This document shows, piece after piece, positions 1-58,270 of a stretch of 64,000 bases of DNA (its first letter is position 1; every line of letters starts with the position of its first letter). A program made the position numbers and the translations under genes. Under the pieces are notes generated by a model that saw nothing but the letters and a program-made list of their open reading frames with translations, searched no databases and was not told where the DNA came from. This DNA comes from Certhia americana. Lineage: Eukaryota > Chordata > Aves > Passeriformes > Certhiidae. The stretch spans positions 36,001 through 100,000 of the forward strand of contig JAGMWU010000138.1 in NCBI GenBank assembly GCA_018697195.1, in the 5' to 3' direction.

Positions 1-2
1 TC

Positions 3-583
3 GAGTCCTGTGATGACTGTCACGTGCTGGCTGCGCCTTTACCGGCTGGGGTGAACCCCAGAGGCCTTAGGGCCTTGGAGCTTTGGCAGACTGATGTTAC
101 CTAGATTGCCGAGTTCGGCCGGCTCAAGCATGTGCATGTCACGGTGGACACGTTCTCCTCTGCCATGTGGGCCTCTGCTCACACTGGAGAAAAGGCCCGC
201 GATGTCCTTGCCCACTGGAGGCAGGCCTTTGCTGTTCTAGGCATACCTTCTGCTGTGAAAACCGCCTGTGGTCCTGCTTATGCATCGCAGCAGGTGCAGC
301 AGTTCCTGCAGTCGTGGGGTGTGTCACACAAGTTTGGTATCACTCATTCCCCGACTAGTCAAGCTATTGTAGAACACGCTCATGGTACTCTGAAGTGGGT
401 TCTTCAAAAACAAAAACGGGGAATGCAGGGTGACACCCCGTACAGTCGGTTGGCAAAGGCATTGTACACCATTAATCATCTTATTGTGCCCCAAAACTCG
501 AATAACCCTGTCATTTTGCAGCCAACAGGCAACATGGAAACTGTGACCAAACTGAAAGTCTTCAGTGAATGGATCATCAAGTG
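3..583 (+). pseudogene. ERVK-like integrase fragment (broken pol)
   Basis: Remnant of a retroviral integrase of the beta/alpha (ERVK-like) type, the enzyme that joins viral DNA to the host chromosome. One frame starts with the second half of the zinc-binding HHCC domain (CDDC at about 9-20), then LWQTDVT at 81-101 opens the catalytic core, with HVTVDTFS at 138-161 and the sequence around KTACGPAYAS as the second core strand. An in-frame TAG at 102-104 breaks it. The usual glutamate helix is represented by QAIVEHAHGTLK, with E present. Similarity fades after NHLIVPQNS, and the frame ends at 582-584. No env follows; integrase runs almost directly into a polypurine-like stretch and an LTR, so the 3' half of the provirus is deleted. 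The 5' part lies outside the window. Confidence 0.85.
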
Positions 584-719
584 ATGACTCAGATGCAGAT
601 GACATGAGTGATCATTCTGATGACTCCTACACAAATGGACATTGGACATTGTAAATTCCCTTTCAACATTGTTCATTTTTCTTTTTTATTTTTCTTTTTT
701 AAATGGAAAAAGGGTGAGA

Positions 720-1030
720 TGTCGCCCTTGCTTTTGCATGTTTCATCTAGCCTTCTGATGTTTTGAATTTCTGGAGCCAGATTTCACACACACATTTCTG
801 TAAACAATGATTACTTACATTCCTTTCTAAAAAGGAAGTGAGAGTTGATGGACCTGTGGTTTGACCAGTGTAGTCTCAGAGGAGGTCAACTGTTAGACCA
901 ATCAAGGGGAAAATGTGTGTAACCTATATAAATCATAGTTTTAAAATAAACTTTCTCTTCTGCTTCTGCCTTGCTCTAAGAAAGGTGTGTGTGTGTGTGT
1001 GTGTGTGTTCATTCGTGTCGAATTGTAACA
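720..1030 (+). mobile_element. Probable 3' LTR of the ERVK-like element
   Basis: A 311-bp block starts TGTCGCCC just after a purine run (AAAAAGGGTGAGA, 708-719) and ends GTAACA. It contains TATATAAA near 925 and AATAAA near 944, then a short U5 with a (TG)n run. That is the expected order for an LTR following a polypurine tract. The sequence changes abruptly at 1031 into pol of an unrelated element, so the 3' boundary is sharp. The target duplication cannot be checked because the 5' LTR is outside the window. Confidence 0.6.
985..1008. repeat. (TG)n microsatellite
   Basis: Uninterrupted GT dinucleotide run of about 12 units inside the U5 part of the LTR. Confidence 0.9.
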
Positions 1031-1549
1031 AGGGTATTCTAATATCCTCACCTAAACTAGAACTTGAGGTTACTAACTTACAAAATCCAGCACAGTTTTT
1101 GTATGGGGAACCAAAAGAAAAAAATAACTTATGATTGTTTGCATAATATTGAAGAGCAAATAATAATCAGGCCAGATTTAGAAGAAGAGGAGCTGGATGA
1201 AGGAGAAAAGCTTTTTGTTGATGGTTCTTCCCAGGTAGTGGAAGGGAAAAGGAAATAAGGATATGCAATAGTTAATGGAAAGACATTTAAAGTCATAGAA
1301 TCAGGACCATTAAGCCCCAGCTGGTCAGCCCAAGCGTGCGAACTATATGCAGTCTTAAGAGCTTTGCAAATGCTAAAAGGAAAAACTGGAACAATCTACA
1401 CAGATTCTAAATATGCATTTGGTGTAGTGCATACATTTGGCAAAATCTGGGAAGAAAAGGGTCTAATAAATTCCCAAGGAAAAGGATTGATTCATCAAGA
1501 ACTAATAATTAGAATTTTATAAGCTTTACAGGGGCCGGTAGGGATAGCT
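1031..1549 (+). pseudogene. Gammaretrovirus-like pol: end of RT and RNase H (ERV-A)
   Basis: Start of the better preserved class I (gamma-like) ERV, here called ERV-A. The RT connection region is readable at 1050-1200, with a frameshift near 1130, and is followed by RNase H. The RNase H signature FVDGSS lies at 1219-1236, then YTDSKYAF near 1398-1421, consistent with the catalytic Asp positions. In-frame stops occur at 1256-1258 (TAA) and near 1519-1521. The upstream part of pol, gag and the 5' LTR are absent because the ERVK fragment interrupts at 1030/1031. Confidence 0.85.
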
Positions 1550-2980
1550 GTGGTACATTTAAAAGGGCACCAAAGGGGATTAACCCCGTTGGTGAGGGGA
1601 AATAATTTAGCAGACCAAGAAGCAAAAAAAGCTGCCTTATTGGTATTTAGAGAAAAAGAAAACTGGGATCCTTGGGAAGGGGCCAGGAAAAAGTGCACCA
1701 CATGTGGAGAAGATCTATTTGAACCCCCTTGTTATGACTGTTGGAAAGATCTTGGAAGTGATGCACTATACCGTAGCTGTAACAACCCCAAATACAAATA
1801 TTGTTGTATACATGGAGAAAAACATTATCTTTTTAGCTTTACTGTACAAGAAAAGAAAAAATTGGCACAAATGGGGGCAGAAGAAATTGAGACAGGAAAA
1901 TGGGAACTCCCAGATGGTCGAGAGGTTGTTCCAAAGACCATGGCTATAAGAATTATGCGTAAATACCATGAAAGCACCCATTGGGGAGTTCAAGCATTAA
2001 TAGATCAATTTGCCATAAAATATGTGTGCATTGGAGGGTATAATATAGCAAAGAGAATAGTGAATGAATGTTTGATTTGCCAGAAAGTAAACAAGCACCA
2101 ATTGAGAGAGAGACCCCTAGGAGGAAGAGAATTGGCTCACCGACCATTTGCCAAAATTCAATTAGATTTTACTGAACTACCTAAAGTAGGGAAATATAAG
2201 TACTTGCTGGTAATAGTAGATCATTTAACTCACTTTGTAGAGGCATTCCCAACTGCTAGAGCCACCACCCAGACTGTAGTAAAGCTACTGCTTGAGGATA
2301 TTATACCCAGATTTGGCTTTATTGAAACAATAGATTCTGATAGGGGACCACACTTTGTTTCAAAGAATATAAAAGAAGTTTTTGCTGTTTTAGGAACCAG
2401 ATGGGAGTATCATACCCCTTGGCATCCACAAAGCTCAGGAAAAGTAGAGAGGGCGAATGGGGAGATAAAGAAACAACTGACTAAATTAACATTGGAAACC
2501 AAGATGTCCTGGGTAATGTGTCTCCCCTTAGCCCTGTTAAACATTAGGACACAACCTCGCACTGATTTAGGAATTTCTCCTTTTGAAATGTTGTATGGGA
2601 TGCCTTATGATTTAGAGATTCCTCAAGATCATCCCTGGGTTGAAAACTTACAACTTAAACAATATTTAACCCAGCTCATGACTAGGAGAAAACAATTGCA
2701 AGATAAAGGCCTGGTGGTGCAAAGGCCTCCATTAGATATTGCAATACACAATATACAACCTGGAGATAAAGTTTTAATTAGATCATGGAAAGAATCCTCA
2801 TTAACCCCTCGCTGGGAAGGGCCTTATCTTGTTTTACTCACTACAGAAACTGCTATTTGGACTGCAGAACGAGGATGGACACATAGCAGCCGAGTAAAGA
2901 GACCAATCTCTGAAGAACAGTGGGAGAGCTTTGGAAATCCAGAGACTTTGAAGCTCAAGTTGTGTAAGAAAAAGGATTAA
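1550..2980 (+). CDS. ERV-A pol C-terminal ORF: RNase H end and integrase (476 aa open)
   Basis: Long intact frame covering the end of RNase H (HLKGHQRG), a Cys-rich linker (CTTC, CYDC, CC at about residues 49-85), and integrase. Integrase shows the zinc-binding HHCC module (HESTH, then CLICQ), the core with LDFTELP, IDSDRGPHF and the glutamate in KVERANGEIKK (a D,D,E triad), and a C-terminal GPY/F-like module (RWEGPYLVLL). It ends at a TAA (2978-2980). No chromodomain is visible. The chosen start is only the first Met of the open stretch; the real protein would be part of a Gag-Pol precursor, and stops at 1256 and about 1520 separate it from the rest. The Cys-rich insert between RNase H and integrase is larger than usual for gammaretroviruses. 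Confidence 0.9.
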   Translation: MVHLKGHQRGLTPLVRGNNLADQEAKKAALLVFREKENWDPWEGARKKCTTCGEDLFEPPCYDCWKDLGSDALYRSCNNPKYKYCCIHGEKHYLFSFTVQEKKKLAQMGAEEIETGKWELPDGREVVPKTMAIRIMRKYHESTHWGVQALIDQFAIKYVCIGGYNIAKRIVNECLICQKVNKHQLRERPLGGRELAHRPFAKIQLDFTELPKVGKYKYLLVIVDHLTHFVEAFPTARATTQTVVKLLLEDIIPRFGFIETIDSDRGPHFVSKNIKEVFAVLGTRWEYHTPWHPQSSGKVERANGEIKKQLTKLTLETKMSWVMCLPLALLNIRTQPRTDLGISPFEMLYGMPYDLEIPQDHPWVENLQLKQYLTQLMTRRKQLQDKGLVVQRPPLDIAIHNIQPGDKVLIRSWKESSLTPRWEGPYLVLLTTETAIWTAERGWTHSSRVKRPISEEQWESFGNPETLKLKLCKKKD

Positions 2981-3031
2981 TGAGCTGGATTAAGACTATA
3001 TTTTGCCCAAGAGAAGACTATTTGTTATCCA

Positions 3032-3523
3032 TTTGTTTGTGTAAAATGTAACTTGTGTAAAGAAAGCTGGTGGGAACATTGTAGTTACGGATATACTCCA
3101 CCCGATCATTGCTGACAGTGTTATCAAAGAGAAAGAGAACTGACTGAACAAGCCTTGAGATTATTAGTGGCCACTGGGCGAGTAATCCCGTGGACCCGGC
3201 CCTGGTGGGATATTTTTGCACTCGGCATTGATCTGGAAAAGGGTTGTGTACATCCAAACGAACCCCAGAAATCAAACCCAGAGATTTTACAGATAATCTG
3301 CAGAACCACAGTGCCTAAAATTCCCTGTATAACACCTCAAATAAAAGCTAAGAGCTGGGGGGCCTATAAGGAGCGAAATAAACGAAAAGAGCACTCTCCT
3401 GAAGAATACGTTTGCTGCCGAGAAGACGGTACACCTTGCTGCACTAGGCAAAAGTGTAGGAGAAGGAGGCAGAGACGTAAAGAAGTGGAGGCTGGAAAAG
3501 AAATGCTCAAGGGAGCTGTATAA
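3032..3523 (+). CDS. ERV-A unassigned ORF between pol and env (Cys-rich N-part, Arg-rich C-part)
   Basis: Between pol and env, in a frame different from env, lies a stretch open from 3032 except for one TGA at 3113-3115. It then runs open for 136 codons to a stop at 3521-3523. The N-part carries closely spaced Cys (KCNLC at 3044-3058, then further Cys around 3080-3120). The C-part has CCREDGTPCC and a basic run, KCRRRRQRRK, near 3450-3481. No in-frame ATG precedes the basic part, so it would need splicing or a non-ATG start. I do not recognise the family. Simple gammaretroviruses do not normally carry a gene here; complex retroviruses place accessory regulators here. It could also be a chance or degenerate exon. 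Confidence 0.45.
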
Positions 3524-3578
3524 CAATAAGCAGCGTTACTCGCCCGTGAGGCCCCAGGCTTTATTACTTGAGGTGAGA

Positions 3579-5526
3579 ATGAAAGGCACAAGAGGCACAA
3601 CCAAATTACATAAGTTAGAAAAGAAAGTTTTCATTAGGAAAAAAAACCCCACCAGCTCTCTCCAGGATTGGGTATTTATTTGTTTTAATTTGTGTAAACT
3701 TGGTACAAGTGGAGGATAACCTCCACCAACTATTTAAGTGGTCCTTAATTCAGTGAGAAGATCAAAGTACAGTTCAAACCATTATTACTCCTGGAGTACC
3801 CAGCTTTACACCTGCTTTGTGTCAAATAGTGCCTATCGAGTTCTGCTTAAACCAAAAAGGATTTTATTTCTGCCCAAGCTCTAACCCTGGGCAGGGTTAT
3901 TGTAATAGTCCTGGACAATATTATTGTGCATATTGAGGTTGTGAAACTATTGCATCACACTGGGATCCAGGAGCAGGAACTGATAAATTCCTTAAAATAG
4001 GATGGGGGCCAAGTGGATGCACTCCCCCTAAGAAAGATCCTAGCGGTGGTATGGTTTTGGCTCCCCGTGGGGGAATAAGACCTCAATCTTCCTATGCAGA
4101 CTGCCAATTTATATATGTAAATGTATCTCAACCAACAGATCCTGGTTGGATAACTGGGAAAACATGGGGTATGAGATACTGGGAGCCAGGAACTGATAGA
4201 GGAGGATTGATGTTAATTAAAAAGAAAGTGGCAGTGCCTGAGCCTCAAGCAGTGGGACCTAAACCAGTAGTAAATGTTCCAAATGATTCATTCAAAGAAA
4301 TAGAACACCAAAGTACTACTGAACCCTTCCCCCAAAACATCGCAGATCTATCCAATTTCGAGTCAGAGCCAAAGGTTAATCCTTTATGGAAACTCTTAGA
4401 TACCACCTATCAAGTACTAAATTCAACTAATCCGAATGTAACACAGCATTGCTGGTTATGTTATGATATTAAACCGCCTTTTTACGAAGCAACAGGTATA
4501 TACTCTAAAGCAAAAAGAATAAATGGTTCAAACCCAGCTCAATGTTTATGGGACTCTGAGGGTGGGAAACAAGGGATAACGATGCAACATGTATCAGGAA
4601 AAGGGAGGTGTGTTGGAAAAGTACCTCCAGAAAAAGATCATTTGTGTCAAGTAAAAACTTCCCTAAAAGGAAAGTTGTCTGCTGATTGGCTAGTACCCAC
4701 CAACAATGCAAAATGGATTTGTTCTGAAACAGGGATTACTCCATGCTTATCTATCAAATTGTTTGATGAAAGCAGCGAGTATTGCATACAGGTAATGATT
4801 CTTCCCCGAATCATATACCATCCTGAGGAATTTGTGTATAATTACCAAAGTACTCAAAGTCATCATTTACAAAAATGGGAACCATTTAATCTTACTGCTT
4901 TAACTGTAGCCACCCTAATAGCCGTAGGAGCTGCAGGTGCAGGAACAGGAATAACATCACTAGTTCAACAAAATCAAAAGTTCCAATCACTTAGAATAGC
5001 TGTAGATGAGGACTTAGTCCGAATTGAAAAATCAATTAGTGCATTAGAAAAATCACTAAGGTCGTTATCGGAAGTGGTACTGCAAAACCAAAGAGGGTTA
5101 GATCTCATGTTTCTACAACAAGGAGGAGTATGTGCTGCACTGGGAGAACAATGTTGTATATATGCGGACCACACTGGAGTTGTAAGAAATACTATGACTA
5201 AATTCCGTGAGGGCCTAGAAAAACGAAAACAAGAACGAGAAATGCAACAAAGCTGGTATGAATCTTGGTTTAACCATTCTCCTTGGCTTACCACCTTGTT
5301 GTCTACTTTTGCAGGACCTTTAATTTTAGTTATTTTAGTGCTAACCTTTGGACCATGTATATTTAATAAAGTCATTGCAATAGTGAAGAGTAGACTGGAA
5401 GCTGCACATTTAATGCTAATTAGAGCCCGATATGAGTCTATAAAAGATGAAGAATTTGAGTTAAGCTATGCTGAGCTCCAAAGATTTGATAAACAAAATG
5501 AGAAAAAGAAGAGGGGAAAATTGTAA
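3579..5526 (+). pseudogene. ERV-A env (gammaretrovirus-type envelope), 491-codon open 3' part
   Basis: Envelope glycoprotein gene of the class I ERV. A hydrophobic leader (YLFVLICVNLV at about 3673-3705) starts the frame that becomes env. TGA stops at 3754-3756 and 3934-3936 break the surface subunit, after which the frame is open from 4051 to 5526. The surface part has the CWLC motif (4450-4461) that in gammaretroviruses makes the disulfide link to the transmembrane subunit. The transmembrane part has a Gly/Ala-rich fusion-peptide-like segment (about 4890-4960), a coiled-coil heptad region, the LQNQRGLDL segment followed by a CX6CC motif (about 5131-5157), a membrane anchor (about 5290-5355) and a cytoplasmic tail. 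The position expected to carry a furin site reads HLQKW, so cleavage looks lost. The gene leader probably also needs a frameshift near 3640. It is a broken copy with an unusually well kept 3' two thirds. Confidence 0.9.
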
Positions 5527-26257: not shown

Positions 26258-26381
26258 CTAGTGCTCTCTGTCATGTTCTCTATTAAGGGTGCTTGGTTTT
26301 ATTTTTTTCATCGCTTATTGTGGTATGCGCAAACTGTGATGAGTTGATTGATACTTTAATTGTTGAGTACCCATTCTTTAT

Positions 26382-27734
26382 TGTTATGGTTTATCCCTGA
26401 TTGGTCAATTTTGTAATATTGACACTTGATTAAAGTAATGAAAAGGGTGGATACACCTTTAGTGAATACACATTTTGAGGTGAGATTCTGGAAATAGCTC
26501 TCTTCTGGTTTTCAGTGGGGTGAGTTGAGGCGCCTCGGCCGGCCCGGCTGTTCTCCATGGCTGGGCGGGGCTGAAGTTCTCCCTGCCCTCCCCCAGCACC
26601 CTTGGCAGGTAAAGGGGAAGGAGAGGCAGTGAGGGGGAGGGTGGAAGGCTGGCCCAGTCCTGGCTGCTGAGATCTGCTAATCCAGGATGGCCCCACACAG
26701 CAAAACGGGGGCTGAGCCAGGCCCGGCATCTGCCAGGCAGAGAAAAGAGAGGTGATCAGCCCTGGCATGAGACATCTGAAGCCTGACCGGGCTGAAAAAA
26801 AGATCCTAGCCTCCCTCTCTCAGCACAGCTGGAACTAGAAAGCAGCAGCCAGGCCTTGAGAAAGATCCTGGCCCAGCTCCAGCACAACTGCAATGCATCA
26901 TGTGACTGCCTTGTCTCGGCTGCAGTCTGTGCTCACTTTTTTCCCAACCAGATGAAACTTCCAAAGCATGAATCTTACCCAGAGGAAAAAGAGGAGACTG
27001 GAAAAAATGTAAAAAGACACAGCATAAGACTTAATGTCAGAGAAAGTGAGAAGAGAATCTTAAATGGCAAGGAAAATTGAAGGAGTGGCCTGGTTAGGTT
27101 GGACTTCTCTTGTGAGGCCATAGAGAATGGACTAAATACCCTGTAACCTATGGAGTGTTTGTTAGGGGATGCAAGGTTCTAGTCAGAGTTGTGAGCTGCT
27201 GGAGAAAATTGAACAGAGGAAAACTGAGGAAGTGAGAGGTGATGCCCTGCCCATTGAGGGAAGATGACCTCTGTTTCTTGAAATGAAAAGAACTTTTGTT
27301 TTATACTAGAAGAGGCATCCTTAAACTGTACCCTAATAAACTGATATGGCCCATGAGCTGCTGTAGAAGGCTGTCTCATGGGAGGGACTTCACAATGGCA
27401 ACATTTCTCCCCCGGGTGGGCCATTGTAGAGTGTAGAAGCAAGAGAACAGGCATCTTGTGAAAAATCTCTATGGTATTCAAGAGAGACTCCTTTCTCCTT
27501 AATGAATTAAGAAATTATTATTTTAAAAGTGGTAACTGACTGAGAATCCCATATTTTGTCTTTGATATCAAAGTAAGAAAGTGAATAGTTAGTAGGGGGA
27601 AGAGAAGTGTTTTGAAAGTTTCATTCTGTTTTTTTTTTCTTTTGGTGTTAATTAATAAAGTTTTATTCCTTTTAAGTTTAAGCCTGTTTACTCTTGATTG
27701 GGGAATTTTGAATTGGCAAACCAAAACTAAGATA
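26382..27734 (+). mobile_element. ERVL-type LTR (older copy of the 56919 family)
   Basis: About 1.35 kb, starting TGTTATGGTTTATCCCTG. It is homologous along its length to 56919-58270, sharing the AATGAAAAGGGTGGATACAC block, the CAGATGAAACTTCCAAAGCA block, the CCTTAAACTGTACCCTAATA block and the final TTAATAAAGTTTTATTCC. Orientation is plus from that AATAAA. The 3' end is placed by homology; a clear target duplication is not visible. Confidence 0.75.
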
Positions 27735-42630: not shown

Positions 42631-43799
42631 TGTCTTGGTTTGAAGGACAGGTGTCTGCTAAGGAAGGCAGGAGCCTCCCTTGGAATGGAGAATGTAAACA
42701 CTCTCCCTCCAAATTACTATAATTTTGAAATTAAGGGATTCTCAGGCAAAGATATGGGAATAAGAATAACAGTTCTTTATTAGGAGAATTAAAATAAAAA
42801 TGCAGTAATATAAAACAAACAAAACCCCTTGACAGAGTCAGAATACAACCTGACACCCTGTGGGTCAGGGTGTTGGTAGCAGTCTGATTAAATGGTGGCT
42901 GCAATCCTGAAGTGGCAGATGTGGTTCTGTTGAAGCAATGATCCTGTAGAAAGGTGGAGTTCTTTTGCTGAAGGTCCATTGGTGGTGATAGATGGGCCTG
43001 GTCTTCCTCTGGGAATCCAGCGGAGAAAAGTCTGCTTTGGTGTGCCGAATCTCAGATTTTTATCCAGGTAGGAATGCTTGGCTCCTCCCCCTGGATGGAG
43101 CATTTCTCAATGGGATGATGTAAGTTTATCAGTCATGCAGTGAGACTCAATTGCCCATTAGTGGAAGATAACTTCCTGGAGGGAGGATGGGTTGTGGTGA
43201 TGCCTTCTCGAGGCTGACCTGGAACAGAGATTAGACAGGGCAAAAGGATAAAGTGGGTATTTATTAAAAGGTCTCAATGGGTACACCTGGGCCACACAAG
43301 GGTCCAGCTGGACCACACCCAAGATGCACCCCAAAGTGGTCACAAAATGGCCCCCCACATCAAGAGGTCTCACATTTTTATAAGTTCTGGTTCATTAGCA
43401 TATTAGAACCAATTGTCCAACCATAGCTTTGGGTTATGAAACTCCGTCCTCCTCATTTTTTCTTCTCACTCCACTGTTCTTTTCATTCCTGGACCTAAAA
43501 GTTGTCCTTGATATCAAACTAGAGAAGGAATTGTTTTGTCTATCTACATCACAAAGAGAGCTTAGTAGTACTTAATATGAGACCTAAAACTACTCACTGA
43601 AACAGCACAGAGTCCAAAAAACCCAAAAAAAACAACAGCTAAACCCCAAGGCATCAGTGGAAGAGAGAAAGAAAACTGCCCCAGCTGGTTTTTTAACAGC
43701 TGGCCTATTAACAGAGGATTACCCCACCCCCACCCCAATTTCAACAGATGGTGATAGAATACATGCTTCTGGTTATATCTTGCACCACAACCCAAGACA
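42631..43799 (-). mobile_element. Solo LTR, TGTCTTGGTTT family (copy 3), itself interrupted
   Basis: Starts TGTCTTGGTTTGAAGG and ends CCACAACCCAAGACA, with the family blocks CCTCCCTTGGAATGGA and AATAACAGTTCTTTATTAGG. On the minus strand AATAAAG and a TATA-like GGATAAAAAT are in the right order for an LTR in minus orientation. It is split by another LTR at 43198-43656 with a GTGG duplication. Without that insert it would be about 706 bp, like copy 2 (719 bp). Confidence 0.8.
43198..43656 (-). mobile_element. Solo LTR with TGATGCCTT/AAGGCATCA ends (copy 1, TSD GTGG)
   Basis: 459 bp with perfect 9-base inverted termini and GTGG duplications at 43194-43197 and 43657-43660. On the minus strand there is a TATA box (TTATAAAAAT, near 43373-43382) and AATAAATACC (near 43257-43266), setting the orientation. 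A 4-bp duplication suggests a gamma-type element. Confidence 0.88.
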
Positions 43800-45858: not shown

Positions 45859-46561
45859 TGAGGGAGAACATACTGATACCTTCTTGAGGTTGACCTGGAA
45901 CAGAGACTAGACAGAGCAAAAGGATAAAGTAGGTATTTATTAAAAGGCCTCAATGGGTACACCTGGGTTGCACAAGAGTCCAGCCAGACCACACCCAAGA
46001 TGCACCCCAAAATGGTCACAAAATGGACAACTGATGACAAGGTCTCACACTTTTATAAGTTCTGGTCTATTAGCATATTAGAATCAATTGTCCAACCATA
46101 GCTTCATGTTATGAAGCTCTATCCTTCTTGTTTTTTCTTCTCACTTGACCATTGTTTTTGTTCTTGGGCCTGAAAGTTGTCCTTGGTATCAAACTAGAGA
46201 AGGAATTGTTTTGTCTACTCGGTGAAGAGAGCTTAGTAGCACTTAATACGAAACCTAAAACTACTCACCAAAACAGCACAGTCTAAAAAATATAATAGCT
46301 AAAACTTAAGGCATCAATACAACCAACCTCATGAATGACTCCAAGCACCATTGACTTGTTGTTCTTCTATACAACCTTTTATACCATTCATCCTACATGC
46401 ATTACACCTGTGTGACTCCTTCACCCTTCAGTGATTGGTCCATACCCCTCAGCATTCCAAGTCTCTACCTTCAACACTGCTCACCTGTCTTACACAGCTG
46501 TAGTCCATTAGGCTGATGAGGCTCAGCCACCACCCCAATCACCACAAACTGTGTGCCTACA
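45859..46561 (-). mobile_element. 3' LTR of the host-gene-carrying provirus (interrupted)
   Basis: Matches 51332-51591 from TGAGGGAGAACATA to GTGTGCCTACA, apart from a younger LTR inserted at 45874-46316. Without the insert it is about 256 bp. On the minus strand it starts TGTAGGCACACAG directly after the polypurine tract AAAGAAAAAAAGGGGGAAT (46562-46580) and has a TATA box (TATAAAAGG) near 46378. Rough reading gives on the order of 10% difference between the two LTRs, so the insertion is old. Confidence 0.88.
45874..46316 (-). mobile_element. Solo LTR with TGATACCTT/AAGGCATCA ends (copy 2, TSD ATAC)
   Basis: 443-bp relative of 43198-43656, inserted in the 3' LTR of the provirus. Target duplications ATAC lie at 45870-45873 and 46317-46320. 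The 5' end has one change relative to copy 1. TATAAAAG and AATAAATACC lie on the minus strand. Confidence 0.88.
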
Positions 46562-47185
46562 ATTCCCCCTTTTTTTCTTTTTAAATCAATGCCATGTCTA
46601 CCAACCCTCTATAGGGCCTCTGCAAAAGAAATAGTAAACATGGTACTAGTATTATTTTATATATATTCTACTAGCTCTGGAGTGCATCCATGTACTGACC
46701 TTGATTCATTTCCCAAACTAATATCATGTCATCAAAGTTTTTATACTTATACCTATGGAATTAACTTTCATACCTTTGCCTACAGAATATTAACAAAGAT
46801 TAACGGCTGCAATTCACAAATATAACATATATGTTTCACCAGCAAATAAACACATTGTATTGAATAATCAGACTGCTCTGTCTCTAGCTCCCACTGCTGC
46901 TTTAGTAAATTCTCTTGTTCCTTTTTCATTTTTTGTTACTTTTATCTTCTATCTGCTGAAGTAATGTCTCTGCTTGCTGCTTCTCTCCCTCTTGTCTTGT
47001 TCTTTTCAACACTTCCCCTTGTGCAGTTTTGTACTCGTTTTCATAAAATCCATCCATAGTTGTGAGGGCAAGACTGTTCCCACTCTTTGGTAATTGGCAC
47101 AACTGCATTTTATCAGAGGCAAGACTGCCTTCATCACTATCTCTATCCACCCTCCTACAACTCCCCCTTTCTTTTTAAATTACAA
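46562..47185 (-). other. 3' untranslated-like region with two polypurine tracts
   Basis: On the minus strand a block with ACAATGTGTTT and ending TTTAAAAAGAAAGGGGGAGTT (about 47345 down to 47158) is followed by a 75-codon open frame (47150-46926). A second, diverged copy of the same kind of block (about 46870 down to 46562) ends in the polypurine tract that abuts the LTR. This looks like a partial duplication of the 3' end of the provirus. The open frame (SDEGSLASDKMQLCQL, then EGEKQQAETLLQQIEDK) is charged and coil-like; I do not recognise it. Confidence 0.5.
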
Positions 47186-47369
47186 AATTGCAGCATTTCT
47201 ATAAGGACATGTTTAGGTAAATGGATATTATGACATATTCACATATTTCATGTAGGACTAATAGGTAGAAAGACATGTTTAAATACAACACATAGGTTTT
47301 ATTAAGAAAGAAACACATTGTACTGATTATTTAGCTTTCGATATTTTTGCTTTTATGCTACTAGTCCCA

Positions 47370-49170
47370 GAGCTAGGCTGTTGATCTTTTCTGATTTTGC
47401 TTTAAGTACTTGATCTTGTTTAATCTGAGTCTGTTCTTGTTCTTCTCTTTCCAACATTAGCTGATCAAACCTGTTCTTTTAGACATTTATTTTTTCTCAG
47501 GGCTTCTTTATGCAATACTAAAGCTGTCTGTAATTTCCTTTGGAGGCGCTCTCTGGATTTCTCTTCTGTTACAGCTCTTTGCTTTTGAGATTTGGAATCA
47601 TTTAGATTTGCAGGTTTTGCTAGTGGCTCTTCTACTGTTTTAATTTGTTTCTGGATTTCACATTCTGTTGCTTCTCTCAGTTTAGTTTTCTTAGAGTAAT
47701 CAGTTTCTGATAGTTGAAAAGTGGTGATTTTTCCTTCTAAATTCCCTTGAAGCGAATTACTTTCTGTTAACATCTCTGTTTCTTCCTGAAGTTTTGTATA
47801 ATCACTTTCTAGTTCTTTTAGCTCAGTGTCTTCACTTGGTACTGAGGTGATCGTGATTTCTGACACTTTCAAGGATACAACCTGAACCTTGTTTCTTGTT
47901 TTATGTTCTTGCTTGAGTTGCTCAAGGTGGGCTTTTTGTTCATCAAAATCTGTTGCCATTTTTATGTGCTCTTCACTTTCTTGCTTGAATTTTTTTTCAT
48001 ATCTTCTTTCATGACCAAAACCTCCCCCTGTAAAGCTTCTTTTTCTTTTTGTAATTGATTTATGGCATTAACATCATTGCTGGGATTCAGACACTCATTC
48101 CTGACTCCAGCACTTGATCTAGGCTCTTCTAAACTGGAATTTTTCAACAATTTTTCCTTCTTTTTAAGTTCAGACTTTATCTCTTCAAGAGTTGAGAGCA
48201 ACTGAGAACATTCCTCTTGCTCTTTTATCAAGCTCAGATTGCAGATGAGCAAGCATACAGTCCTTCTCTCCTAAAGATTTTACGTTTTGCTCACAAACAT
48301 TTTGTTTTTCAGCTATGACATCATTCAGTTCTGCAATATCGTGCTGAAGTTCCTCTAAATAGGATGCTCTTGAAGGTGAAGTTTTGGTCAAACCACTTAC
48401 CTTGGCATCTTTTTCTACAAGTTGTTTCAAATTTCCAAGATGAGACTCAAAATCATTACTTTGTCCTTCAATTAGTTTCACTTTGTCTGCTAACTCACTA
48501 ACTTGCTTCAACAGCTCCTCTGCTTTTTTCTGCTCTTCTTCTATTTCTTCCCGTCCACTCTTTTCTAATTTCCCAGCTTTTGGCATTAGATCACTTCTTA
48601 CTATCAATGCCACTTGAAGCTTCTTTTTTAGATTCTCTTTTTCCTTGCCCATTTTCTCAAGCTTGCACTTCATCTCCTCTTTTTCATTCATTAAATCTTT
48701 AAACTCAGCTTCTCTACCGCTTAGCATAACCTGGTTATGTTCCAGTTCTTTCTTACAATCTCCAAGTTCCTGCAATACTCGGTTTAGCTCTGCCACTGAA
48801 CTGTTATGAACAGCTTTAAGGTCTTGCAGTTTGACATTTAATGTATTCCTCTCTTAAGAAAAAAAAAATAAAATCAGCATTTCATTAGACAATGACTCCA
48901 TGACATGGGTTACAGAAGAGTCTTTTTCTTTCATTTGCTGGTTTAGATTAGAAATTAAATCCTTCTGCTGATTGACCTGGGACATTAAGTTTTTGATGAG
49001 GTGATCTTTTCCCCCCATTTCTTCAAGGAGACTTGCTACTTTTTTACCTTCAGCCTGCAGCTTTTCTTGACTAGTTATTAATCTTGTCTTGAAAAAATTC
49101 CACCTGCTTATTTTATTTCTGCTAAAGACTCTTCCCTTTCACTCTTGTTTGACTAATGTTAAGTAACCCC
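47370..49170 (-). pseudogene. Giantin (GOLGB1)-like coiled-coil cDNA inside a provirus
   Basis: About 600 codons of uninterrupted coiled coil on the minus strand, in at least four frame pieces (49140-48870, 48860-48230, 48252-47962, 47959-47465, then to about 47370). They run on without introns. Typical pieces are LQAEGKKVASLLEEM, NQQMKEKDSSVTHVMESL, VAELNRVLQELGDCKKELE, LKKKLQVALIVRSDL and LQRKLQTALVLHKEALRKNK. The repeated KLQ-AL--RKE motif and the order of segments resemble the middle of giantin (GOLGB1), a Golgi tether. Identity as GOLGB1 rather than another golgin is an inference. It lies after the gag start and before the 3' polypurine tract, in the direction of the LTRs, where gag, pol and env should be. 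Frameshifts, stops and a T-rich patch (48856-48870) show that it is not intact. Confidence 0.65.
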
Positions 49171-49384
49171 GCAGCTGTCTTGTTTCTCAGTGTTGGTGCG
49201 TCCCTGCTTCTTCCCATGTTTTAACAAAGAAGGCAGTTGGTGCATTCATTCTCACACCGTTTCATCCACACCAAACAAACAAAATGCACAGTGCCCGCTC
49301 CTCACATTTAATACCTTTTCTTTGTAATATACGCAGCAGGATGTCCAGTATGGACTCTTCTTCTGCCAGTATTTGAGCCCCCAT
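49171..49384 (-). pseudogene. gag matrix start of the host-gene-carrying provirus
   Basis: On the minus strand an ATG at 49384-49382 opens 40 codons (MGAQILAEEESILDILLRIL, then QRKGIKCEE) to a TGA at 49264-49262, followed in other frames by VKTWEEAG. The pattern resembles the N-terminal matrix domain of alpha/beta-type avian ERV Gag: an initiator MG, a leucine-rich helix and a KGI segment. Similarity ends near 49170, where the giantin-like coil starts. A splice donor CAG|GTGAGT lies just upstream at 49409-49401. Confidence 0.6.
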
Positions 49385-49400
49385 TCCTAAGCTTCTATCC

Positions 49401-49409
49401 ACTCACCTG
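49401..49409 (-). promoter_or_regulatory. Splice donor in proviral leader
   Basis: On the minus strand CCAG|GTGAGTGG is a near-perfect donor, 17 bases before the gag ATG. A donor in the leader near the gag start is the normal retroviral layout for making subgenomic mRNA. Confidence 0.55.
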
Positions 49410-49532
49410 GGGGTGGTGTATCTATCTATAAGTCATCTGGTGATGCAAGCTCTTGGTCTATCTGCTTTGTTCTTCAGGTCCTTGGTCCACCTGCTTTATG
49501 CTAGAGACTTTTCTCAGTCTGGCTCCTTTCTT

Positions 49533-51105
49533 TGTGGTAGGTTTATTTTTTGCTGTGAGATAGGATTAGGAGAAAAAGCAAAACATGTTTAAACTTGAAA
49601 GGGTATAAAGAAAACTTTATTAACAGAGTTAAAAGAAACATAATAAGAAAAATCGGAATAAAACCTTCAGAACACCTTTTCTCTCCCTCTCTANNNNNNN
49701 NNNNNNNNNNNNNNNNNNNNNNNNNNNNNNNNNNNNNNNNNNNNNNNNNNNNNNNNNNNNNNNNNNNNNNNNNNNNNNNNNNNNNNNNNNNNNTCCCTCT
49801 CTACAATATTCTTTTCTACTGACAACGTAGAGACAAAAACTTGGGGCTTTTAGTCAGTTTACTACCTCTGAAATAGTTTCTTCAGTTCACTTAGGGAGAA
49901 GAGTTTTTCTTGCCATACTATGGAGATTTCTTTACAAGAAAATAGTTCTCTTGTGGTTTTAATGTCACAAAGGAAATCTGCCATCCGGGATATAAAAAAA
50001 TCTGTTTGCAGTGTGAAAGTCCTTCCTATGTCTTGCAGTTTTTCTCACAGCTGCTTTCACGGGCCATTTCAATTTACTGGGGTGCTATTTTAAGAATGAG
50101 GTGTTCTAATATAGAGCATAAGTTCATCTCTGGGACTAGAGGTCTTCCACTAGTGTCCCCAGGGCAGAGTTTCTCATTTCTTTATGCTCAAGTTTCTCAC
50201 TAGATCCACATCAACATCGATCTGCTTCAACTCCTGGTGCCTCGGCCCACAACTCTACTAGAAGGCTACATTCCCCCAATGCATCTCTATGAGTCACAAG
50301 GAAATAAAACCAAAGTCAAATATATCTTTACCATACCTTTACAGGATTTTAAGTCAAGCTTAAAACATCTCTTCAATCCCTTCTATCTAGAATTAACTCT
50401 TTCTTTACTGACCTCTGAGTCCCATGTTATTATCTCTATGTAATCACCTTTTTTTTTCTCCTTTTCCTAATTTAGGAAAGAAATAGTATTTGTCAAGTCA
50501 TTTGTTCTCAAGCTTTACCAGTAATTGAAACAGTTCTATAAAGTTTTGCAATGCTGAAAAGCCGATCTGGTCCAAGCTCTGCATCGGGAACATGGATCGT
50601 CGTGCTTCCCTGCTGGCCACATGGTTCCTACCAGCACTGTGAATGTCAGCCCGACTCTGCTGGAGTGATGAAAGCAGGGAAAAAATCCTGCTCCCGGTGC
50701 TAACACAGTCTCTGCCTGGCACAGTCCAGCAAGCTCCGTTAAGAAAGAGCTTGTCTTTGCTGGCAAAGAGCCCCAGCCATCCGCCAAGATAGGGCCTGGT
50801 GAGCTCCTTGCTGAAGGGCCTGACAGCCCCTCAGTGAGGGATTCGGCAGCCTGCTCACCACCCCTCCAGAGACAGAAAAATCTCATCCAGGCCGTGGGAG
50901 CCAGCTCGGACCCAGCCGTGCGGGTTGAGCCGGGACTGACCCGGACCCAGCCTGCCACCACCTTCCAGGCTGGGAACAAAGAGAACTATTCCTGGTTTTT
51001 TTTTCGTCTTAAGATGTGTAGTTACAAAAGGCGTATCCACTCTTTTCATTGGCTTAGTCAGGTGTCAGTATTAAAAAATTGTCCAATTAGAGCCAATCCA
51101 GGACA
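49533..51105 (-). mobile_element. ERVL-type LTR nested in the proviral leader (contains N gap)
   Basis: Minus-strand LTR starting TGTCCTGGATTGGC (51105 downward) and ending CTACCACA (49533). The first part (51105-50980) is the reverse complement of the 26382 and 56919 LTR starts (GACACC, CCAATGAAAAG, GTGGATAC). The end has TTAATAAAGTTTTC, again shared. Flanks TTCTT (49528-49532) and TTTTT (51106-51110) may be a 5-bp duplication with one change. Length is 1573 bp including 100 N. Confidence 0.75.
49694..49793. other. Assembly gap (100 N)
   Basis: Exactly 100 unknown bases. The ten bases TCCCTCTCTA stand on both sides (49684-49693 and 49794-49803), so the two contigs probably overlap and little or nothing is missing. 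Confidence 0.95.
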
Positions 51106-51141
51106 TTTTTACAGGCACTCTTTGGCTTCATTCTGTAGGTT

Positions 51142-51174
51142 CTCTCTTTCTTTCTTTCTTTCTTTCTTTCTTTG
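51142..51174. repeat. (CTTT)n microsatellite
   Basis: About eight CTTT units in the proviral leader between the nested LTR and the primer binding site. Confidence 0.85.
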
Positions 51175-51311
51175 TTCTACGGGCACTCTCTGCCTGCCTC
51201 TATTCTGCAGGCTCTCTTCTCTTGGCTCTGCTCTATGGGCACTCTGCTCTGTTCTTCAGGCTCCCTCTCTGCCTGGAGTTATTCTTCATCTCATTGGCAT
51301 CTCATCTTCTC

Positions 51312-51329
51312 ATCACATTGGGGTCACCA
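51312..51329 (-). promoter_or_regulatory. Primer binding site, tRNA-Trp type
   Basis: The minus strand reads TGGTGACCCCAATGTGAT two bases after the LTR end. It differs at two of 18 positions from the tRNA-Trp site of avian alpharetroviruses (TGGTGACCCCGACGTGAT). This fixes the orientation and the 5' LTR, and suggests an alpharetrovirus-related parent. Confidence 0.88.
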
Positions 51330-51331
51330 GA

Positions 51332-51591
51332 TGAGGGAGAACATAGAACCAACCTCAGGAATGGTTCCAAGCACCACTGACTTTTTGTTCTTCTGAACAG
51401 CCTTTTATACTATTCCTCCTTCATGCATTACACCTGTGACTCCTTCACCCTTCTGTGATTGGTTCATACCCTTCAGCATTCTAGGTCTCATTACCTTTAA
51501 CACGCTTCACCTGCCTTACACAGATGTAGCCCATTAGGGATGAGGCTTGGCCACCACCCCATTCCCAATCACCACAAACTGTGTGCCTACA
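51332..51591 (-). mobile_element. 5' LTR of the host-gene-carrying provirus
   Basis: 260-bp LTR, minus strand from TGTAGGCACACAG (51591) to CTCCCTCA (51332), with a TATA box (TATAAAAGG) near 51410. It pairs with 45859-46561. The next bases on the plus strand (51592 on) resume ERVL pol, so the provirus boundary is firm even though the target duplication (CCACTC against CTGTCT region) has decayed. Confidence 0.88.
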
Positions 51592-56913: not shown

Positions 56914-56918
56914 CCTAG

Positions 56919-58270
56919 TGTCTTGGTTTAGTTCTGACTAGACAATTTTGTAATATTGACACCTAATTAAACCAATGAAAAGGGTGGATACACCTTTGTG
57001 AACACACACTTTCAGATGAGAAATCTGTCTCTTCTGGTTTCTGGTGGTGGGACAGGTAGGAGGTCCAGCCCCGCTTCTTCCCATGGCCGGGCTGGGCCAA
57101 GTTTCTCCTACCCTCCCCCGGCACCCCTGGCTGGACAAAAGAGAAAGAAAGGCAAGGGGGTGAAGGCTGGCTGGTCCAGTTCTCAGCTGATGAGATCTGC
57201 TGAGCCAGGAGTGCCCATGCCGCAGAGGGAGGGGCTGAGCCAGGCCTGTCAGCTGCCAGGCAGGGAAAGCCCTGGCATGTGACATCTGAAGCTTGACCAG
57301 GCTGGAAAAAAACATCCTAGCCTCTCTCTCTCAGCACAGCTGGAATTGAAGGCAGCAGCCAGGCCATGAGATCTTGGCATAGCTCCAGCACAGCTACTAT
57401 GCACCAAGTGACTGCCTTAACCTGACTGCTGCCCTGCTGTTAACTCTTTCCTAACCAGATGAAACTTCCAAAGCAGGAATTTTTCCCAGTGAGAGAAAGA
57501 AGAGACCAGATGAAATTTAGAAAGGCACAGTGTGAGATCTGATGTCAGAGAAAGTGAGAGAAGAATCCTAAATTGCAAGGAAGATTGAAGGAGTGGCCTG
57601 GTTAGGTTGGACTTCTGTTGTAAGGCTGTAGAGAATGGACTAAATACCCTGTAACATATGGAATGTTTTTAAGGGGATGCAAGGTTCTAGTCACAGTTGT
57701 GAGTTGATATAATTGTGGTCTACTGGAGAAACTGAACAGAGGAAGACCGAGAAAGTGAGAGATGACGCCCTCTGCCCATTGAGAGAAGATAGCCTCTGTT
57801 TCTTGAGATGAAGAGAACTCTTGTTTTATACTAGAAGAGGCATCCTTAAACTGTACCCTAATAAGCTGGATATGGCCCATGAGCTGCTGTGAAGGCTGTC
57901 TCATGGGAAGGGTCTTCACAATGGCACATTTCTTTCTCCGGGCAGGCCAGTTGTGAAGTGTGAGAGCAAGAGAACTGTTATCTTGTGGAAAATCTCTATA
58001 GTACTCAAGAGAGACTCCTTTCTCTTTGATGAATGAATTGAGAAATGATTATTTTAAGGATGATAACTGACTGAAAATCCCAAGTTTTGTCTTTTTATAT
58101 TAGAGTAAGAAAGTGAATAGTTGGTGAGGAAAAAGAGAAATATTTTGAAGGTTTTATTCTAATTCTTGTTTGTTCTTTTAGTATTAGTTAATAAAGTTTT
58201 ATTCCTTTTAAGTTTAGGCCTGCTTTCTCTTGATTGAGAAATTTCAAATTGGCAAATCTAAACTACAACA
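56919..58270 (+). mobile_element. ERVL-type solo LTR (1352 bp, TSD CCTAG)
   Basis: Starts TGTCTTGGTTTAGTTCTG, ends AAACTACAACA, and is flanked by CCTAG at 56914-56918 and 58271-58275. TTAATAAAGTTTTATTCC near 58190 gives plus orientation. It is the same family as 26382-27734 and, in reverse, 49533-51105. Confidence 0.9.

What the first reader, a model, noticed from the sequence alone, without database searches (positions are those of the whole stretch)
45859..51591. Old provirus that appears to have captured a giantin-like host mRNA
Seen: two matching ~258-bp LTRs in minus orientation, a tRNA-Trp-type primer site, a leader splice donor, a gag start (MGAQ...), then about 1.8 kb of intronless coiled-coil coding sequence in the same direction, then a polypurine tract and the 3' LTR. 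No pol or env is recognisable. Known: acute transforming retroviruses carry host cDNA fused behind a shortened gag. Inference: this is a fixed, germline example in a bird, with a golgin (GOLGB1-like) cargo and an alpharetrovirus-related carrier. Capture of a Golgi tether gene by an ERV is not something I know to be described. If copies are shared among birds, the cargo may have been mobile as a family.
Basis: partly seen in the sequence, partly recalled or inferred. Interest (0 to 1): 0.92.

Follow-up and report, generated by a model that had tools for sequence, protein, structure and literature searches.

The report
Bird retrovirus family carrying GOLGB1 piece
A piece of the bird's own GOLGB1 (giantin) gene was picked up, most likely once, by a defective retrovirus and then copied with it to dozens of places in the genome, apparently as a passenger that makes no conserved protein.

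Summary
The cargo is GOLGB1: it matches bird GOLGB1 proteins (best 85% identical over 99% of 209 residues) and this genome's own gene (87-90% in the two main blocks), with sharp ends at window 49160 and 47439. It is not a lone provirus. By my count the piece occurs at 44 or more places in this genome; 13 of 20 fetched LTR regions carry it, and 5 of 8 with both ends readable have exact 6-bp target duplications. The 14 copies mapped form one clade, sister to the host gene: one capture, then amplification. Three of six further loci lack GOLGB1; two of these match the window down to base 49160. Corrections: the captured stretch lies within one 3,627-aa open frame, so 'intronless' does not show mRNA capture. 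The gag-like piece has no natural relative in the searches made and is out of frame with GOLGB1 in 5 of 8 copies read. Copy-to-copy dN/dS is near neutral. The window copy is a mosaic. ERV capture of host genes is known; this cargo and copy number are new to me.

The parts
51332..51591 (-). 5' LTR, 260 bp, TGTAGG...CTCA
   Evidence: 40 genome matches scored of 307 first-look candidates, the window's own two LTRs included
51312..51329 (-). primer binding site TGGTGACCCC..., Trp-type (tRNA assignment recalled)
   Evidence: a similar site follows the LTR in L011, L024 and L027
51106..51331 (-). leader, first part
   Evidence: 65-90% identity to leader stretches in other copies
49554..51105 (-). 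later LTR-like insertion in the leader, with a 100-N gap at 49694-49793; not part of the element
   Evidence: its edge matches LTR-like repeats at 56919-57023 and 26397-26479; N run; ends set by eye
49385..49553 (-). leader, second part, with splice-donor-like CAG|GTGAGT at 49409
49161..49384 (-). gag-like start (MGAQ..., stop after 40 codons), ends at the 5' join
   Evidence: same segment in other copies and in GOLGB1-free relatives; no Pfam or database hit, in PDB only designed proteins
47439..49160 (-). GOLGB1 cargo, colinear with host C5:2276166-2278729 less 126 bp, 648 bp and small indels
46562..47438 (-). 3' module with two polypurine-tract-like stretches (about 47167 and 46569); looks like a partial tandem duplication
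   Evidence: part from 46984 on shared with GOLGB1-free relatives
46317..46561 (-). 3' LTR, first part
45874..46316 (-). later 443-bp insertion in the 3' LTR (GTAT on both sides); a second copy of its family at about 43198-43643
45859..45873 (-). 3' LTR, end
46326..49381 (-). tract 99.87% identical (4 mismatches in 3,056 bp) to C27:4.80 Mb, with different sequence on both sides

Best explanation
A defective (non-autonomous) endogenous retrovirus of this bird's lineage picked up one internal stretch of the host GOLGB1 giant exon (about 2.56 kb). It stands where related GOLGB1-free elements have a different segment of about 400-450 bp. Both joins were probably made by template switching of reverse transcriptase between co-packaged RNAs (inferred). 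The chimeric RNA kept what the cis-acting machinery needs: LTRs, primer site, leader with donor, and polypurine tract. A helper virus then reverse-transcribed and integrated it in trans many times with 6-bp target duplications (copies and duplications shown; helper inferred). While spreading, the cargo lost pieces and gave subfamilies. The copies decay close to neutrally, so the GOLGB1 piece behaves as passenger RNA. The window copy is one such element, later mixed with another copy (or mis-assembled) and broken by two insertions.
For: One capture: common cargo ends at host positions 872-881 (10 of 14 copies) and 3434-3435 (10 of 14) of L031, and a 126-bp loss shared by 12 of 12 copies that can be scored. 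The 14 copies form one clade (100/100) sister to the host gene (97/92). Mobility: 13 of 20 fetched LTR regions carry cargo. The cargo query gave 59 matches with 40 of 62 candidates scored, 38 places by my count besides the host gene. Exact 6-bp duplications in 5 of 8 complete copies, 5-bp in 2, none in 1 (by eye). 5' and 3' LTRs are sisters in 7 of 10 copies. LTR K2P in 8 copies runs from 0.028 to 0.122, which suggests prolonged activity. Donor kin: L036, L038 and L041 have the gag-like start and 3' module without GOLGB1; the window matches of L036 and L041 stop at 49160, where host identity begins. Passenger: median dN/dS 0.67 over 88 pairs against means of 0.61-0.64 in neutral simulation.
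Against: No helper or full-length relative was identified. The LTR context of the 38 places was looked at only in those also fetched. The 5' join shows at most 1-2 bases of overlap, which does not single out template switching. Two main shared losses keep the frame (126 and 648 bp), though others do not (about 334 bp at the cargo start of L010, L013, L021; about 29 bp in L009, L011, L013). Non-coding K2P averages 0.150 and cargo dN 0.098 over 86 pairs, so the cargo has changed somewhat less than the non-coding parts. 3 of 88 pairs have dN/dS of 0.40-0.41, under the simulated 95% range of 0.44-0.87 for d = 0.15; several others lie above it. Of 27 stop positions 4 are shared by two or three copies. 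In L010 and the window the LTRs do not pair; L025 is unresolved.
Confidence: 0.82

Rival explanations
1. The element encoded a useful golgin-like coiled-coil protein (own start codon or Gag fusion) that helped the virus or element spread, and mostly dead copies are seen now.
For: The 126- and 648-bp losses keep the frame. 23 of 27 stop positions are private to one copy. The frames agree at the join in the window, L012 and L016, and in L013 and L021 the stretch before their later join reads on into GOLGB1 (by eye). Cargo dN (0.098) is below non-coding K2P (0.150) in 86 pairs. A rough split of host-copy distances allows dN/dS near 0.3 on the branch before amplification if host and stem have equal dS. 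I raised this rival from 0.12 to 0.15 on recounting the frames.
Against: Copy-to-copy dN/dS is at the neutral level. The gag-like frame and GOLGB1 differ at the join in L011, L014, L015, L020 and L025 (by eye). The agreement in the window, L012 and L016 goes with local length differences. The equal-dS split is an assumption.
Confidence: 0.15
2. A GOLGB1 retrocopy made by a LINE was inserted into an ordinary provirus, or the LTRs are unrelated insertions that flank it by chance.
For: LTRs of the window copy are not a proven pair and lack a target duplication.
Against: The same joined structure recurs in the mapped copies (13 loci and the window), with no poly-A at the cargo end (window and L014 looked at) and target duplications outside the LTRs of other copies.
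Confidence: 0.02
3. The copies spread mainly as DNA, by segmental duplication and gene conversion, above all on contig C27.
For: 15 of 38 cargo places lie on C27, 1.5% of the assembly (one search tests 15 of 37). A 3,056-bp tract is near-identical between C138 and C27. L009 and L010 have 3' LTRs about 8 kb apart that pair with each other. The two C14 places lie 67 kb apart.
Against: 5 of 8 complete copies have exact, different 6-bp duplications, on three contigs (C1, C3, C27), and 3 of these 5 (L013, L014, L016) also have paired LTRs.
Confidence: 0.05

Closest known systems
Crocodilian ERVs with captured KIT-ligand (CrocERV29) and nectin3 (CrocERV31), PMC4299795 (passages; section 15)
   Same: Germline ERV lineages with a captured host coding sequence, several copies, capture older than species splits.
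   Different: There the KIT-ligand lineage keeps its viral genes and the captured ORFs are reported under purifying selection. Here only an internal fragment, no pol or env recognised, near-neutral decay, 44 or more places.
Maize Bs1 and LTR-mediated retroposition (passages in PMC5408686; the Tan et al. 2016 paper was not held)
   Different: Here a single cargo is the core of a multi-copy vertebrate ERV family; mRNA origin cannot be shown because the host stretch has no intron.
Acute transforming retroviruses (v-src, v-sis; review PMC13297096, passages)
   Same: Host coding sequence carried by a retrovirus; defective carrier.
   Different: Endogenous, many copies, cargo is a Golgi tether fragment with no known transforming role (recalled), in doubtful frame with the gag-like start.
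Chicken ENS-1/ERNI (Soprano), PMC3958431 (passages)
   Same: Multi-copy bird ERV with a protein that holds a coiled coil.
   Different: ENS-1 is an expressed protein of retroviral origin; the passages read do not mention GOLGB1. No sequence comparison was made here.

Membership tests
Non-autonomous ERV family | several independent insertions with LTRs and target duplications | tested here: met
Non-autonomous ERV family | no intact pol or env | tested here: met
   in the window the space from leader to 3' LTR is taken by the gag-like piece, GOLGB1 and an 877-bp module whose 82-aa frame has no significant PDB match; the module was not scanned with Pfam, and inserts in other copies were not scanned
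Non-autonomous ERV family | mobilised in trans by a helper | not testable with these tools
   no helper identified
Host-gene-transducing retrovirus | captured host sequence inside the provirus | tested here: met
Host-gene-transducing retrovirus | spliced (mRNA-derived) cargo | tested here: inconclusive
   host stretch lies in one open frame of 3,627 aa (no stop in 4.2 kb)
Host-gene-transducing retrovirus | Gag-cargo fusion frame | tested here: inconclusive
   of 10 copies with the original join, by eye: different frames in 5 (L011, L014, L015, L020, L025), same frame in 3 (window, L012, L016), unclear in L024, not read in L027; L013 and L021 (later join) read on in one frame just before it
Alpharetrovirus-related ERV | 6-bp target duplication | tested here: met
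   5 of 8 complete copies exact; that alpharetroviruses make 6 bp is recalled
Alpharetrovirus-related ERV | tRNA-Trp primer site | tested here: inconclusive
   TGGTGACCCC present; tRNA-Trp complement recalled, not checked against a bird tRNA
Alpharetrovirus-related ERV | gag/pol similarity | tested here: inconclusive
   gag-like piece: no hit; no pol to test
LINE-made processed pseudogene | poly-A at the cargo 3' end and target duplication around the cargo | tested here: not met
   both ends in mid-CDS; no poly-A at the 3' join of the window and L014

The most novel reading that the evidence does not exclude
The dozens of GOLGB1-bearing copies, enriched on one contig that may be the W chromosome, feed germline small RNAs or sense transcripts that act on the host GOLGB1 mRNA. 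A captured passenger would then have become a dispersed regulator of a Golgi tether gene. The nearest analogue I met is the W-linked PxyMasc retrocopies of a moth (PMC9674220, listing only).
Probability: 0.05. Interest if true: 0.85.

Novelty: new variant of a known kind. Interest (0 to 1): 0.64.

Why it matters
It shows a host gene fragment becoming the standing core of a successful vertebrate ERV family, with the donor gene, GOLGB1-free relatives and graded deletions all in one genome. That makes capture, cargo loss and the limits on retroviral packaging directly measurable, and it tests whether captured cargo needs a function to spread. The data lean towards no.

Tried and rejected
Pfam and PDB comparison of cargo pieces gave only weak coiled-coil noise. 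The gag-like piece gave nothing in Pfam and no hit among 8 candidates in the protein database. In PDB it gave a designed helical-repeat protein at E 1.8e-8 and a synthetic one at 0.74, which I read as helix composition. The 3' frame at 46929-47174 gave one PDB row at E 0.35. IMG/VR scans: the cargo query matched 11 stretches by pattern, none confirmed, and the primer-site pattern matched nothing. A protein search meant to find other short gag-GOLGB1 fusions found 2 proteins, both ordinary GOLGB1 fragments; it could not find broken copies, so presence in other birds is untested. A first codon mapping with a loose tblastn threshold mixed in chance coiled-coil matches and was discarded. dN/dS below 1 was first taken as constraint; simulation with the measured transition bias showed such values are neutral. 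In that call the mean dN/K ratio failed because of one zero distance. Shared stops in the gag-like piece were not taken as proof of a dead gag; I infer a site that mutates repeatedly. Paper searches listed no report of GOLGB1 or giantin in an ERV; this covers only the open-licence PMC set. Requests did not complete: genome search with the 3' module and with the right flank of the provirus.
Full report
What is there. On the minus strand, window 51591-45859 holds LTR, primer site, leader with splice donor, a gag-like start, coding sequence, a polypurine tract and the second LTR. Two later insertions interrupt it: about 1.55 kb in the leader (51105-49554, with a 100-N gap) and 443 bp in the 3' LTR (46316-45874, flanked by GTAT). 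Both share sequence with other repeats in the window.

The cargo. A 209-residue piece matches 8 proteins at E of 1e-5 or better among 3,523 candidates; 7 are named as golgin B1 of birds and the best is unnamed, 85% identical. tblastn shows colinear GOLGB1 from residue 1467 to 2279 of P0001 with two gaps and small shifts.

The host gene. A C-terminal GOLGB1 query finds the gene at C5:2274175-2275554, 93% identical to P0001, within an open frame of 3,627 aa. The fetched 4.2 kb has no stop in that frame. The window matches it from 49160 to 47439 (87% over 1,309 columns, 90% over 328, 72% over 166 with a 30-base gap), lacking host positions 2169-2294 (126 bp) and 2461-3108 (648 bp). So the captured stretch and both losses lie within one exon-sized open frame. 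Lack of introns says nothing on mRNA capture, and exon skipping does not explain the losses.

The family. The LTR query gave 40 scored matches of 307 candidates. I fetched 20 regions. 13 carry cargo (L009-L016, L020, L021, L024, L025, L027), 6 are LTR only, and L026 has LTR and leader bits. The cargo query gave 59 matches, with 40 of 62 candidates scored. By hand I count 38 places besides the host gene, joining pieces that continue each other (the pair C27:11656332/11663941 is joined across 6.6 kb), or 37 if C138 and C27:4.80 Mb are one. Six more places not in that list (L009, L010, L020, L037, L039, L040) make 44. The count is a lower bound. LTR context was seen only in the fetched copies.

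One capture and graded loss. In 14 copies, the cargo starts at host 872-881 in 10, at 1206-1207 in 3 (L010, L013, L021), and further in for L009. It ends at 3434-3435 in 10. The 126-bp loss is in 12 of 12 scoreable copies. The 648-bp loss is in 6 (window, L009, L014, L015, L024, L025) and not in 7 (L011 reads only 55 bp into it); L027 cannot be scored. The protein tree puts the 14 copies in one clade (100/100), sister to the host gene (97/92), with P0001 outside. An earlier tree without the host gene, with 13 copies, agreed more weakly (80/60).

Independent insertions and age. Of 8 copies with both outer ends, 5 have exact 6-bp duplications, 2 have 5 bp and 1 none; of 6 solo LTRs, 1 has an exact 6-bp duplication (read by eye). 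LTR pairs are sisters in 7 of 10 copies; L025 is unresolved, L010 contradicts, and the window does not pair. K2P between LTRs of the 8 copies runs from 0.028 to 0.122. With recalled rates of 1.9e-9 to 3.3e-9 per site and year this is about 4-7 to 18-32 million years. These ages are rough, and gene conversion can distort them.

The relatives without GOLGB1. The leader query (40 of 70 candidates scored) named 9 places with no cargo match and not yet read. I read 6: three carry cargo (L037, L039, L040) and three do not (L036, L038, L041). The latter share the gag-like start and 3' module. The window matches of L036 and L041 stop at base 49160 and that of L038 at 49202. They continue with a different segment, 400 bp in L036 and 454 bp in L038, alike among the three. 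So viral and host homologies meet at the same base. The 3' side is less clean: 47438-46985 lies outside the match to these relatives and looks like a partial duplication of the 3' module. At the 126-bp loss the host has a 6-bp direct repeat, and the 5' join shows 1-2 bases of possible overlap.

Does the cargo make protein? Median dN/dS is 0.67 over 88 copy pairs. Neutral simulation with the measured transition bias gives means of 0.61-0.64. Three pairs (0.40-0.41) lie under the simulated range for d = 0.15 and several above it. Non-coding K2P averages 0.150, cargo dN 0.098 and dS 0.152 over 86 pairs. Stops occur at 27 positions, 23 of them private. Host against copies gives 0.32-0.66, as expected if the host branch is constrained. 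By eye, of the 10 copies with the original join, the gag-like frame differs from GOLGB1 in 5 (L011, L014, L015, L020, L025), agrees in 3 (window, L012, L016), is unclear in L024 and was not read in L027. In L013 and L021 the stretch before their later join reads on into GOLGB1. I conclude passenger RNA as more likely, with an early protein phase not excluded.

The window copy itself. Window 46326-49381 is 99.87% identical over 3,056 bp to a stretch of C27:4798500-4806400, while leader and LTR beyond it are 81-88% alike and flanks differ. This fits gene conversion, recombination or an assembly error. It explains the unpaired LTRs; the missing target duplication remains unexplained.

Place in the genome. 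15 of 38 cargo places lie on C27; for 15 of 37 the expectation is 0.5. Avian W chromosomes are described as ERV refuges (PMC8310711, abstract). That C27 is W is inference only.

Known context. Capture by ERVs is known in crocodilians (PMC4299795). LTR-mediated retroposition by template switching is described, chicken included (PMC5408686, passages). I saw no report of GOLGB1 in an ERV in the listings of searches.

Noticed in passing
window 1-5526: Another ERV, plus strand: integrase core in 105-581 and 1523-2977 (the latter with an MLV-type integrase C-terminal domain) and a 529-aa open env-like frame 3937-5523 (TLV_coat E 3.4e-109).
   Followed up: partly
window 26379-27729 and 56916-58265: Two 1.35-kb LTR-like repeats 80% identical; the insert in the provirus leader shares their edge.
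   Followed up: partly
window 43198-43643 and 45874-46316: Two copies of a 443-bp repeat, 85% identical, with 4-bp target duplications by eye (GTGG, GTAT).
   Followed up: partly
G000:C30:1253658-1254896: A GOLGB1-like match in an open frame of 1,679 aa, 33% identical to the GOLGB1 query; possibly another golgin.
   Followed up: no
L036 and L038, element strand of the pieces cut (222-621; 170-623): GOLGB1-free relatives share a 400-454 bp internal segment of unknown origin; it could be another captured piece.
   Followed up: no
G000:C138 against G000:C27:4798500-4806400: 3,056-bp tract with 4 mismatches between two loci with unlike flanks.
   Followed up: partly
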